DNA of 64,000 nucleotides from Oscillochloris sp. ZM17-4 (GTDB lineage: Bacteria > Chloroflexota > Chloroflexia > Chloroflexales > Chloroflexaceae): NCBI RefSeq assembly GCF_019599295.1, contig NZ_JAIEWN010000006.1, positions 38,365 through 102,364 of the forward strand. The letters run 5' to 3'. Under the pieces are notes generated by a model. It was not told where the DNA came from. It did no database searches and worked only from the letters and a program-made list of their open reading frames with translations. Within the stretch, counting starts at the first letter, position 1, and every line of letters begins with the position of its first letter. This document shows, piece by piece, positions 1,118 to 28,617 of this stretch. A program made the translations under genes and the position numbers.

Positions 1118-1149
1118 GATTGCAGATTGCAGATTGCAGATTGCAGATT
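1118..1149. repeat. GATTGCA heptamer array (left arm; decayed right arm near 1267-1279)
   Basis: About four and a half tandem copies of GATTGCA between the divergent aminotransferase and the 1298 gene. A degenerate inverted copy (TGCAATCTGTAAT) lies about 120 bases away at 1267-1279. It belongs to the family that also sits inside cimA and bchH. Confidence 0.9.
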
Positions 1150-1208
1150 GGCGCTATTATCGCATATGCTTGCCGCCCAAGATGACAAACTTGGTACCAG
1201 ATGCCTAC

Positions 1209-1237
1209 TTGAAACTGTATGGCAAAGATCCTACAAT
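1209..1237 (+). promoter_or_regulatory. Sigma70-type promoter for the 1298 gene
   Basis: TTGAAA at 1209-1214, a 17-bp spacer, and TACAAT at 1232-1237. The position, about 60 bases before the start codon, fits a vegetative promoter for the membrane protein gene that follows. Confidence 0.55.
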
Positions 1238-1297
1238 AGGTAGTAGTACCAAGGCGAGTGGGGGCCTGCAATCTGTAATCACACCAGGGAGCCTGCC

Positions 1298-2390: not shown

Positions 2391-2413
2391 GCAGATTGCA
2401 GATTGCAGATTGC
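2391..2413. repeat. GATTGCA heptamer array, short
   Basis: About three tandem GATTGCA units directly after the ridA stop codon, without a clear inverted partner. This is the shortest member of the family in the window. Confidence 0.85.
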
Positions 2414-24705: not shown

Positions 24706-27700
24706 ATGCGCTTTGTCTTTGTGACCACGCAGGATAACTACACCACCGCCCTGCGCGACGCGGCCGCCGCGATCACGCGCGAGCATGGGATCGACGTGTC
24801 GGTCGGCGTCTACATGACCTCGGAGCTGAGCGACCCGGCCATGCGCGGGCGGCTTGAGGAGGACCTGGCGCGGGCCGACTTTATCTTCGGCGGGATGATC
24901 TTTGGCGAGGCGATCGTGCGGCCCCTGGTGGAGCAGCTGGCGAAGGTGAGCTGCCCGGTCTGCATCATCATCAGCAACCCGGCGCTCATCCGGCTCACCC
25001 ACCTGGGCAAGTTCAACCTGGGCATGATCAGCGATGGTAAGGATAAGGACAAAGAGAAGGAGAAGGAGAAGGAGAAGGGGGGCATCAGCAGCATCCTCCA
25101 GTCGCTGAAGCCCAAGCACGGCCACGGCGAGGTCTCGCGCCAGATGAACCTGGTCAAGGGGCTGACCAAGATCCTCAAGTTTCTGCCGGGCCGCTTCCGC
25201 GACCTGCACACCTACGTGTCGGCCCACCAGTTCTGGGTCCACAACACGCCCAAGAACATGGAGCGCATGCTCTGCATGCTGATCGAGCGCTACGTGCCGG
25301 GCTACAAGGGCAAGCTGCCGGTCGAGGACCCCGAGATCTTCCCGGATGTGGCGATCTGGCACCCGGACGCGCCCAAGCCCTTCACCGACATGAAGAGCTA
25401 CCAGAAGTGGCAGAAGGGCCGCCGGCTCAAGCTGGATAAGGGCGTGGCCGGGCTGCTCTCGCTGCGCGTGATCGTCCTCGGCGACAATGTGCGCCACCTG
25501 GCCGGCCTCATCCACGCCCTGGAGAAGCGCGGCGTCGAGGCCCGCCTGGTCTACACCGCCGGCCTCGATGGCCGCCCGGCGATCGAGGCCTTCTTCACCC
25601 AGCCCGCCGGCGGGCGGGCCGAGCCGACGATCGACCTGATCGCCACCACCTCGGGCTTCGCCCTGGTGGGCGGCATGGCCCAGAGCAAGCCCGACGAGGC
25701 CCGCGCGGCCATGGAGGCGCTGAACCTCCCCTTCCTCCAGACTATCCCGCTGGTCTTCCAGAGCGTCGATAGCTGGCTGGCCGACGATCGCGGCCTGAAC
25801 CCGATGCACATCGCTATGAACGTGGCCCTGGCCGAGCTGGAGGGCGCGGCCGAGCCGCTGGTCTACGGCGGGCCGTCGAGCGACTCGGGCGTGGCCGTGC
25901 CGGTGCAGGCTCAGGTCGACCGTTTCGCCGAGCGGGTGGCCCGCCGGATCGCCCTGGGGCGCAAGGCCAACGCCGAGAAGAAGGTGGCCCTGGTGCTCTT
26001 CAACTACCCGCCGAACCTGGGCAGCATCGGCACCGCCGCCTACCTGGACGTGTTCGCCAGCACCTACGAACTGCTCTCGCAGATGCGCGCGGCCGGCTAC
26101 CAGATCGACCTGCCGGCCAGCGCCGACGAGCTGCGCCAGATGCTGGTCGAGGGCAAGGGCGACCCGTCCAGCGCGCCGCTCGTCCACGGCACCGACGCCG
26201 CCGTGGGCGCCTTCCTCTCGCTCGACGACTACCGCAAGCTCTTCCCCGACTATGTGGACATCGAGCCCTTCTGGGGCGCGGCCCCCGGCGAGCTGCTGAG
26301 CGACGGCCGGCGCTTCCAGATCCTCGGCCGCCGGCTGGGCAACGTCTTTGTGGGCGTGCAGCCGACCTTCGGCTACGAGCGCGACCCGATGCGCATGCTG
26401 ATGGCCAAGGACGCCGCGCCGCACCACGGCTTCGCCGCCTTCTACACCTGGATCGATAAGGTCTTTGGCGCGGACGCGGTGGTGCACATGGGCACCCACG
26501 GCGCGCTGGAGTTCATGCCCGGCAAGCAGGCCGGCCTCGGCCCGCAGTGCTGGCCGCCCCGCCTGCTCGGCGGCCTGCCCAACATCTACTACTACTGCGT
26601 GAACAACCCCAGCGAGGGCACGATCGCCCGCCGCCGCGGCGCGGCCACCCTGGTCAGCTACCTGGTGCCGCCGGTGCAGCAGGCCGGGCTCTACAAGGGC
26701 CTGCGCGTCCTCAAGGACAGCATCGATATGTATCGGGCGAAGCCGTCGCCAGAGCTGCTTGAGGATATCCAGGTGCAGGCCGAGCGATTGCAGATTGCAG
26801 ATTGCAGATTGCAGACCGAACAATCTGAAATCTACAATCTGCAATCTGCAATGGACAGCTACATCGCCGCGCTCAGCCACGAGCTGCTCCAGGTCGAGCA
26901 GCGGCTCATCCCGATCGGCCTGCACGTGCTGGGGCGGGCACCCTCGACCGAGGAGCTGGTGGACACCCTGGCCCTGGTGGCGGCCTTCCAGCGGCCCGAC
27001 CCGGGCGCGCCCACCCTGCCCGAGCGGGTCGCCGCCGGCCTGGGCTTCTCCTACGCCGAGCTGGGCGCCGGCCTCAGCCGCGACCCGGTGGCCCAGGACC
27101 GCTACCGCCAGGTTGATACGATCTGCAAGGAGGCCATCCGCAGGTTTATTGCAGATTGCAGATTGCAGATTGCAGATTTGCAGACAGACCAATCTGCAAT
27201 CTACAATCTGCAATCTGCAATCGCCTCCACCAACCTCTACCTGTACGAGACGGCGCAGGTGCCGCCCGACTCGTTGGCCGCGACCTGGCGCCTGCTGGGC
27301 GACCTGCGCGGCAAGCTGACGGTTGACCACGAGACCTCGGGGCTGCTGAACGCCCTCTCGGGCGGCTACACCCCGCCCTCGCCCGGCAACGATGTGGTGC
27401 GCAACCCGGCCGTCGTGCCCACCGGGCGCAACATCCACGGGCTCGACCCCTACCGCATCCCGTCGGCGGCGGCCCAGGTCAGCGGCGCACGGGTGGTGGA
27501 CGATCTGCTGGCCCGCCTGACGAAGGAGCAGGGCCAGATCCCCGAGACGGTGGCGCTCATCCTGTGGGGCACCGATAACATTAAGACCGAGGGCGAGGGC
27601 GTGGCCCAGGCCCTGTCCCTGCTGGGCGCCCGCGCGATCAGCGACGAGCTGGGCAAGGTGGCCGATGTGGCGCTCATCCCGCTGGAGGAGCTGGGCCGCC

Positions 27701-28617
27701 CGCGCGTCGATGTGGTGGCCACCGTCAGCGGCATCTTCCGCGACCTGATGGCTATGCAGGCCCAGCTGATCGATAAGGCCGTGCGTATGGCCGCCGCCGC
27801 CGATGAGCCCGAGGCGATGAACTTCGTGCGCAAGCACACCTTGGCCCAGGCCGCCGAGCTGGGCGTGAGCATCGACGAGGCCGCCTGCCGGGTCTTCTCC
27901 AACGCGCCGGGCACCTACGGGGCCAACGTCAACAACATGGTCGAGAGCGGCTCCTGGGAGGACGACTCCCAGATCGGCGACGTGTTCATGACCCGCAAGG
28001 GCTTCGCGATGGACAAGCGCGGCGAGTGGCAGGCCGCCCGGCCCATCCTGGAGCAGGCGCTGGGCACCGTCCAGGCCACCTTCCAGAACGTAGACAGCGT
28101 CGAGGTCGGCATCAGCGACGTGGACCACTACTACGAGTACCTGGGCGGGGTGACGAAGAGCGTGGAGAAGCTGCGCGGCACCCGCCCGACGGTGATGATG
28201 GCCGAGGTGGAGGCCTTCAGCGGGCCTGGCGGCGGGCGGGTGCGCTCGCTGGAGCAGATGGTGCGCCTGGATAGCCGGGCCAAGCTGCTCAACCCGAAGT
28301 GGTTCGAGGGCATGCTCGCCCACGGCTACGAGGGCGCCCACGAGATCGAGGTGCGCGTCAGCAACACCTACGGCTGGAGCGCCACATCCGGCGCCGTGGA
28401 GGGCTGGGTCTACCAGGGCGTCGCCGAGACCTACCTGCTCGACGAGGCCATGCGCGAGCGGCTGGCCGCGCTCAACCCGCACGCCGCCGCCGGCGTGGCC
28501 CGCCGCCTGCTGGAGGCCAACAGCCGCGGCTTCTGGGACGCCGACGAGGCCACCCTGGAGCAGCTGCGCGAGATCTACGCCGACCTGGAGGATAAGCTGG
28601 AGGGCGTGACGTCCTAA
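24706..28617 (+). CDS. bchH: Magnesium chelatase subunit H
   Basis: 1303 residues, CobN/BchH family. The large subunit binds protoporphyrin IX and inserts magnesium with BchI and BchD, the first dedicated step to bacteriochlorophyll. The N-terminal domain opens RFVFVTTQDNYTTALRDAA; the core holds VLFNYPPNLGSIGTAAYLDV and VVHMGTHGALEFMPGKQAGL; the C-terminus holds NNMVESGSWEDDSQIGDVF. A Lys/Glu-rich stretch (KDKDKEKEKEKEK) occurs near residue 110. Two GATTGCA palindromes are read in frame at residues about 694-716 and 815-839, making it slightly longer than usual. AAGGAG precedes the ATG. BchI and BchD are not in the window. Confidence 0.95.
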   Translation: MRFVFVTTQDNYTTALRDAAAAITREHGIDVSVGVYMTSELSDPAMRGRLEEDLARADFIFGGMIFGEAIVRPLVEQLAKVSCPVCIIISNPALIRLTHLGKFNLGMISDGKDKDKEKEKEKEKGGISSILQSLKPKHGHGEVSRQMNLVKGLTKILKFLPGRFRDLHTYVSAHQFWVHNTPKNMERMLCMLIERYVPGYKGKLPVEDPEIFPDVAIWHPDAPKPFTDMKSYQKWQKGRRLKLDKGVAGLLSLRVIVLGDNVRHLAGLIHALEKRGVEARLVYTAGLDGRPAIEAFFTQPAGGRAEPTIDLIATTSGFALVGGMAQSKPDEARAAMEALNLPFLQTIPLVFQSVDSWLADDRGLNPMHIAMNVALAELEGAAEPLVYGGPSSDSGVAVPVQAQVDRFAERVARRIALGRKANAEKKVALVLFNYPPNLGSIGTAAYLDVFASTYELLSQMRAAGYQIDLPASADELRQMLVEGKGDPSSAPLVHGTDAAVGAFLSLDDYRKLFPDYVDIEPFWGAAPGELLSDGRRFQILGRRLGNVFVGVQPTFGYERDPMRMLMAKDAAPHHGFAAFYTWIDKVFGADAVVHMGTHGALEFMPGKQAGLGPQCWPPRLLGGLPNIYYYCVNNPSEGTIARRRGAATLVSYLVPPVQQAGLYKGLRVLKDSIDMYRAKPSPELLEDIQVQAERLQIADCRLQTEQSEIYNLQSAMDSYIAALSHELLQVEQRLIPIGLHVLGRAPSTEELVDTLALVAAFQRPDPGAPTLPERVAAGLGFSYAELGAGLSRDPVAQDRYRQVDTICKEAIRRFIADCRLQIADLQTDQSAIYNLQSAIASTNLYLYETAQVPPDSLAATWRLLGDLRGKLTVDHETSGLLNALSGGYTPPSPGNDVVRNPAVVPTGRNIHGLDPYRIPSAAAQVSGARVVDDLLARLTKEQGQIPETVALILWGTDNIKTEGEGVAQALSLLGARAISDELGKVADVALIPLEELGRPRVDVVATVSGIFRDLMAMQAQLIDKAVRMAAAADEPEAMNFVRKHTLAQAAELGVSIDEAACRVFSNAPGTYGANVNNMVESGSWEDDSQIGDVFMTRKGFAMDKRGEWQAARPILEQALGTVQATFQNVDSVEVGISDVDHYYEYLGGVTKSVEKLRGTRPTVMMAEVEAFSGPGGGRVRSLEQMVRLDSRAKLLNPKWFEGMLAHGYEGAHEIEVRVSNTYGWSATSGAVEGWVYQGVAETYLLDEAMRERLAALNPHAAAGVARRLLEANSRGFWDADEATLEQLREIYADLEDKLEGVTS
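26786..26852. repeat. GATTGCA heptamer palindrome inside bchH (first)
   Basis: Four direct heptamers (GATTGCA) and about four inverted units with variants (TGAAATC, TACAATC) around the centre GACCGAA. Read as RLQIADCRLQ...IYNLQSAM in BchH. Confidence 0.95.
27148..27222. repeat. GATTGCA heptamer palindrome inside bchH (second)
   Basis: 75 bases, a multiple of three: direct heptamers, a small irregular centre (TTTGCAGACAGACC) and inverted heptamers with one TACAATC variant. Read as FIADCRLQIAD...SAIYNLQSAIA in BchH. Confidence 0.95.

What the first reader, a model, noticed from the sequence alone, without database searches (positions are those of the whole stretch)
26786..27222. Two independent palindromic inserts about 360 bases apart in bchH
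Seen: both inserts carry identical unit sequence but different centres and lengths (67 and 75 bases) and differ in minor variants, so they look like separate insertions or diverged copies. They add about 23 and 25 residues to an enzyme essential for phototrophy. Inference: they sit in surface loops, since strongly conserved motifs on both sides are intact. Each could also form an RNA hairpin within the coding region and affect translation speed.
Basis: partly seen in the sequence, partly recalled or inferred. Interest (0 to 1): 0.7.

Follow-up and report, generated by a model that had tools for sequence, protein, structure and literature searches.

The report
Interchangeable seven-base-repeat hairpins inside bchH
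The two inserts in this chlorophyll-pathway gene are copies of a small hairpin, built from a repeated seven-base word, that occurs hundreds of times in this bacterium; at most compared sites the close relative also has a hairpin, often built from a different word, so the hairpin tends to last while its sequence is rewritten.

Summary
Confirmed and widened. Both inserts (26786-26852, 27148-27222) lie in frame in a BchH/CobN-type gene (24706-28617) and belong to a genome-wide family: the 15-mer GATTGCAGATTGCAG occurs 954 times in the 6.69-Mb genome, with none for the reversed control. Copies are convergent hairpins: about four GATTGCA units, a variable loop, then about four TGCAATC units. About 20 other heptamers form the same kind of hairpin. 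Period 7 dominates the tandem arrays. In 125 of 129 hairpins the 5' arm is the G-rich strand. Outside genes the hairpins abut stop codons. Inside genes nearly all units are stop-free.

New here: a hairpin often persists while its sequence changes. At bchH site 1 the closest relative (G005) has a GGAGTCG array and hairpin. At ten compared in-gene sites none is empty in the other genome, and six differ in unit. The insert sites are the two most length-variable stretches of BchH homologues. The gene is under purifying selection (dN/dS 0.24) and a paralogue without inserts exists.

Closest precedents are Xanthomonas/Nostoc heptamer arrays and the Nostoc trnL-intron P6b stem. The amplifying agent is unknown; Y1-transposase was not found and reverse transcriptases do not track copy number.

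The parts
24706..28617 (+). bchH / Mg-chelatase subunit H-like gene (1303 aa) carrying both inserts
   Evidence: NCBIfam BchH equivalog 1504 bits over cut-off 829; PRK12493 1780 bits; 4zhj ChlH E=0
26786..26815 (+). insert 1, left arm, (GATTGCA)n
26816..26821 (+). insert 1, loop
26822..26852 (+). insert 1, right arm, (TGCAATC)n with variants TCTGAAAT and TCTACAAT
27148..27178 (+). insert 2, left arm
27179..27190 (+). insert 2, loop; the G005 orthologue has closely the same loop (GCAGACAGACCAATCTGCAA)
27191..27222 (+). insert 2, right arm
17532..17600 (.). same family, between a stop codon and the next start codon; G005 has a TTGAATG hairpin at the same place
19086..19153 (.). same family, in frame inside ORF 18496-20118; G005 has an unrelated near-perfect palindrome there, G002 no hairpin
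1118..1280 (.). same family, arms 115 bases apart, right arm decayed; G005 has GATTGCT units and another palindrome in the spacer
2391..2413 (+). single GATTGCA array just after a stop codon
56689..56721 (-). single GATTGCA array

Best explanation
The inserts are two in-frame members of a large family of heptamer hairpins: small, convergent pairs of (GATTGCA)n arrays, REP/MITE-like in size and dispersal, that spread through this lineage before G000 and G005 parted. Shown: genome-wide copies, fixed convergent polarity, dispersed subfamilies with shared internal sequence, stop-codon-abutting positions, near-exclusion of stop-containing units from genes, and persistence of the hairpin position with change of its sequence. 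Inferred: most copies inside genes were removed by selection; those that kept the frame, used a stop-free unit and fell in an indel-tolerant loop survived. GATTGCA qualifies, because a heptamer array reads as the same seven-codon cycle in every frame and neither strand of this unit makes a stop. Inferred: arms are homogenised by period-7 slippage and fold-back templating, and whole hairpins are at times replaced by others, so the element is a passenger in BchH rather than a functional domain. At gene ends the hairpin itself, whatever its sequence, is probably kept or favoured (mRNA 3'-end or translation-termination structure), although tolerance alone is not excluded.
For: Copy number and patchy distribution: 954 in G000, 353 in G005, 235 in G004, 1 in G002 of the same genus, 0 in nearly all sampled genomes of other families of the order. 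Polarity: 31 of 31 convergent in G000, 26 of 26 in contigs of other genomes and phyla, 125 of 129 hairpins of all units with a G-rich 5' arm. Period 7: 296 arrays in 1.11 Mb against 2-20 for periods 5, 8, 10 and 11, and 55-70 for 6 and 9. Dispersal as units: six loci share a 20-nt non-repeat core with its surroundings, and one variant array occurs 18 times exactly. Filter in genes: 24 of 78 stop-free against 3 of 51 stop-containing hairpins, Fisher p 0.0007. Tolerant loops. Purifying selection on the gene. Persistence with rewriting: 10 of 10 in-gene sites still hold an array or hairpin in the other genome, 6 with another sequence; at gene junctions hairpin presence is correlated (odds ratio 9.2, p 6e-8) while 46 of 66 shared tandem and convergent cases are unrelated in sequence. 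Concerted change: G000_C1:415695 and G005 keep nearly the same loop while units changed GATTGCA to GATGGCA in both arms. Insert 2 differs by 15 nt between G000 and G005, frame kept.
Against: No mobilising enzyme was identified, and no clean target-site duplication was seen. Different heptamers at one site could be recurrent insertion into a permissive spot rather than replacement. Gene calls come from my own simple caller, without reference annotation. Single arrays did not show the stop-codon filter (Fisher p 1.0). The in-gene comparison rests on ten sites and two genomes. At one of the ten the G000 sequence is arrays without a strong fold, and at another it is a single array, so 'hairpin' holds strictly for fewer than ten.
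Confidence: 0.62

Rival explanations
1. Pure replication slippage and hairpin-templated correction: arrays arise locally by 7-nt slippage and the second arm is written by fold-back copying; no mobile element is needed.
For: Dominant period 7 with many units in one genome; within-arm homogenisation (G000_C139:128790 against G005); a published proposal that 7 nt is the polymerase-contact length (cited in PMC4679880 and PMC4692102).
Against: The same unit GATTGCA is amplified hundreds of times and recurs across phyla; dispersed subfamilies share non-repeat internal sequence; loops of tens of bases and one-sided polarity are not expected from symmetrical slippage.
Confidence: 0.2
2. The hairpins are selected gene-end signals (terminator, mRNA 3' stabiliser or translation-termination structure), and copies inside genes are by-products.
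For: Median distance to the upstream stop codon is +1 nt; convergent cases mostly run close to stop-to-stop; hairpins are depleted between divergent genes compared with single arrays; presence conserved without sequence; E. coli REPs within 15 nt of stop codons affect translation (PMC12306157, citing earlier work).
Against: No T-tract after any of 129 hairpins, so not canonical intrinsic terminators; 27 of 129 lie inside genes, where such a role is not expected; tolerance of short spacers could give the same positions.
Confidence: 0.3
3. A telomerase-like reverse transcriptase writes purine-rich heptamers on both 3' ends of broken DNA, which are then joined (geometry as in head-to-head telomere fusion).
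For: Convergent G-rich 5' arms for nearly all units; bacterial DRT10 makes 9-nt tandem repeats from an RNA template (PMC12632851).
Against: RVT_1 genes do not track repeat number: none in G007 with 323 copies (88% complete), three matches in G002 with one copy; about 20 units in one genome would need many templates; DRT10 products are protein-primed and not known to be integrated.
Confidence: 0.05
4. REP/REPIN elements mobilised by a Y1 transposase (RAYT).
For: Small, palindromic, dispersed, stop-codon proximal.
Against: No PF01797 match in G000, which has the most copies, while many low-copy relatives have the family.
Confidence: 0.07

Closest known systems
GGGAATC / GGGGA(C/T)T heptameric repeats of Xanthomonas and Nostoc (Rehm et al. 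2015, PMC4692102)
   Same: Period 7, mode of four units, 70-75 convergent pairs per Xanthomonas genome, mostly intergenic and close to the upstream ORF, rare between divergent genes, same gene pairs in two species with variable sequence.
   Different: Their units are G-runs and the authors invoke quadruplexes; GATTGCA and AATGTTG have no G-run yet show the same geometry and arm length, so quadruplexes are unlikely to be the general reason. Here many units coexist and in-frame copies in protein genes are documented.
P6b stem of the Nostoc trnL intron (Kaasalainen et al. 2015, PMC4476775)
   Same: Hairpin built of heptamers; one class of unit (TDNGATT) repeatedly replaces another (NNTGAGT) at the same site.
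   Different: A single RNA-gene site; here the replacement is seen at many sites, including protein-coding genes.
Geobacter metallireducens heptanucleotide elements (PMC2700814)
   Same: Four or five tandem heptanucleotides, some folding back, within and between genes.
   Different: Different units; described as putative regulatory sites.
Rickettsia palindromic elements (from memory, not tested here)
   Same: Palindromic elements inserted in frame in protein genes.
   Different: Longer, not built from heptamers.

Membership tests
Heptameric convergent-repeat class (Xanthomonas/Nostoc type) | tandem units of seven bases | tested here: met
   period 7 dominates
Heptameric convergent-repeat class (Xanthomonas/Nostoc type) | convergent inverted pairs, about four units per arm | tested here: met
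   70 of 129 5' arms hold four full units
Heptameric convergent-repeat class (Xanthomonas/Nostoc type) | located just after stop codons | tested here: met
   median +1 nt in tandem pairs
Heptameric convergent-repeat class (Xanthomonas/Nostoc type) | G-runs able to form quadruplexes | tested here: not met
   GATTGCA has no G-run; so it is filed as a variant of the broader heptamer class, not of the quadruplex-forming subset
REP/REPIN with RAYT | Y1 (TnpA_REP) transposase in the genome | tested here: not met
   no PF01797 match in G000
Intrinsic terminators | T-tract after the hairpin | tested here: not met
   0 of 129
Telomerase-like RT (DRT10) product | RT present where the repeats are | tested here: inconclusive
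   RVT_1 does not track copy number; DRT10 itself not searched
Rickettsia palindromic elements | sequence family relationship | not tested
   recalled only
BchH / Mg-chelatase H | curated equivalog cut-off | tested here: met

The most novel reading that the evidence does not exclude
There are conserved hairpin slots in which the hairpin is maintained but its sequence is repeatedly overwritten by a process with a 7-base period and a fixed purine-rich 5' arm, working in coding as well as non-coding DNA; this would imply a dedicated hairpin-replacing or hairpin-targeting machinery.
Probability: 0.25. Interest if true: 0.85.

Novelty: new variant of a known kind. Interest (0 to 1): 0.55.

Why it matters
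Heptamer arrays have been noted for decades in cyanobacteria, Xanthomonas and Geobacter without an accepted mechanism. This genus gives one genome with about 20 units, a fixed polarity, and orthologous sites where one hairpin stands in place of another, including in a conserved enzyme. That separates unit sequence from hairpin form, argues against quadruplexes as the general cause, and gives a comparative system in which slippage, transposition and selection for hairpins can be told apart.

Tried and rejected
RAYT/Y1 transposase as present mobiliser. Reverse transcriptase as correlate. Canonical intrinsic terminator. A polarity special to heptamers: non-heptamer hairpins share a weaker G-rich 5' bias, so polarity may be a general hairpin property. 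Two Nostoc plasmid accessions were not held; a Leptolyngbyales plasmid gave period-7 excess but only one hairpin, purine-rich 5' arm.

Full report
Observation. Both inserts are present as described. They fold strongly as RNA, and the unit is far beyond chance in the window. They lie in a gene that passes the NCBIfam BchH cut-off.

Not a bchH peculiarity. GATTGCAGATTGCAG occurs 954 times in the genome, the reversed control never. It is patchy among relatives: hundreds in some, one or none in others of the same genus or family. The same array occurs in contigs from many phyla, including Acidobacteria, Planctomycetes and Cyanobacteria.

Anatomy. In 862 kb of the genome every close opposite pair is convergent: GATTGCA first, TGCAATC second, 31 of 31, and 26 of 26 in the other contigs. 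A palindrome reads alike on both strands, so this polarity is a real property. Loops run from none to over 100 bases and differ from copy to copy. A census by period shows that seven dominates, with about 20 units among the hairpins. In 125 of 129 hairpins the 5' arm has more G than C. Non-heptamer hairpins in the same genomes share a weaker bias.

Position. With a simple gene caller, hairpins between genes abut the upstream stop codon, and between convergent genes they mostly run close to stop-to-stop. They are rarer between divergent genes than single arrays are. No T-tract follows. Inside genes nearly all hairpins use stop-free units (24 of 78 against 3 of 51, p 0.0007); AATGTTG, which contains TGA, has none of 26. 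Single arrays show no such filter.

Comparison of species. G005 is the closest relative by BchH identity, and G002 is a nearly repeat-free species of the same genus. Insert 2 has closely the same loop in G000 and G005, with arms differing by 15 nt and the frame kept. At site 1 G005 has a long GGAGTCG array with a hairpin at its 3' end. G007, of another genus, shares the left junction with GATTGCA, and G004 shares the right end, so GATTGCA was probably there first. Of 44 intergenic and genic sites, 17 keep the same unit, 10 have another heptamer and 17 have no heptamer array; the printed G005 sequences at most of those 17 contain another palindrome by eye. At ten in-gene sites none is empty; four share ancestry and six differ. 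At three of these sites G002 has no hairpin. At gene junctions with spacers of at least 60 nt, hairpin presence in the two genomes is correlated (odds ratio 9.2, p 6e-8), although most shared cases are unrelated in sequence. One locus shows both arms changed in concert with nearly the same loop retained.

The gene. The two sites are the most length-variable windows across 32 BchH homologues. The gene evolves under purifying selection (dN/dS 0.24 against G005, 0.12 against G002). A paralogue of 59% identity lacks the inserts. Whether this copy is the essential Mg-chelatase subunit is unknown.

Agent. No Y1 transposase was found in the genome, and reverse transcriptases do not track copy number. 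Some subfamilies share internal non-repeat sequence at several loci, which argues for dispersal by copying and not slippage alone.

Placement. The class is known in outline: Xanthomonas/Nostoc arrays with convergent pairs, four units and gene-end positions, and repeated class replacement in the Nostoc trnL intron. What appears new, within the papers searched, is the generality of the geometry over many non-G-run units in one genome, the in-frame copies in a conserved enzyme, and the frequency of hairpin-for-hairpin change. The literature search covered open-licence papers only.

Noticed in passing
L098 (G004:C288), reverse strand: The G004 bchH orthologue lacks about residues 260-713, with the breakpoint inside the right arm of insert 1; a hairpin-linked deletion or an assembly error.
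   Followed up: partly
G005 at the homologue of window 1118-1280; G000:C139:137103-137307; G005:C1:50458-50743: A separate palindromic element of about 100 bases (GAAGTAACGC...GCGTTACTTC) sits in the spacer between heptamer arms, as if palindromes insert into hairpin loops.
   Followed up: no
G000:C1:286258, C13:28483, C2:108599, C24:125439, C139:194320: Dispersed unit with ends GACAAGRTTTCAG...CTGAAATCTTGTC and a GATTGCA array in one arm; looks like a MITE whose arms are heptamer arrays.
   Followed up: partly
window 26822-26852 and 27191-27222, and other copies: The variant TCTACAAT recurs in right arms of many copies, giving G-U pairs on the opposite RNA strand, which folds better (-45.9 and -54.8 kcal/mol).
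   Followed up: partly
G000:C1:383791-387588: Second full-length BchH-type gene, 59% identical, without GATTGCA inserts.
   Followed up: partly
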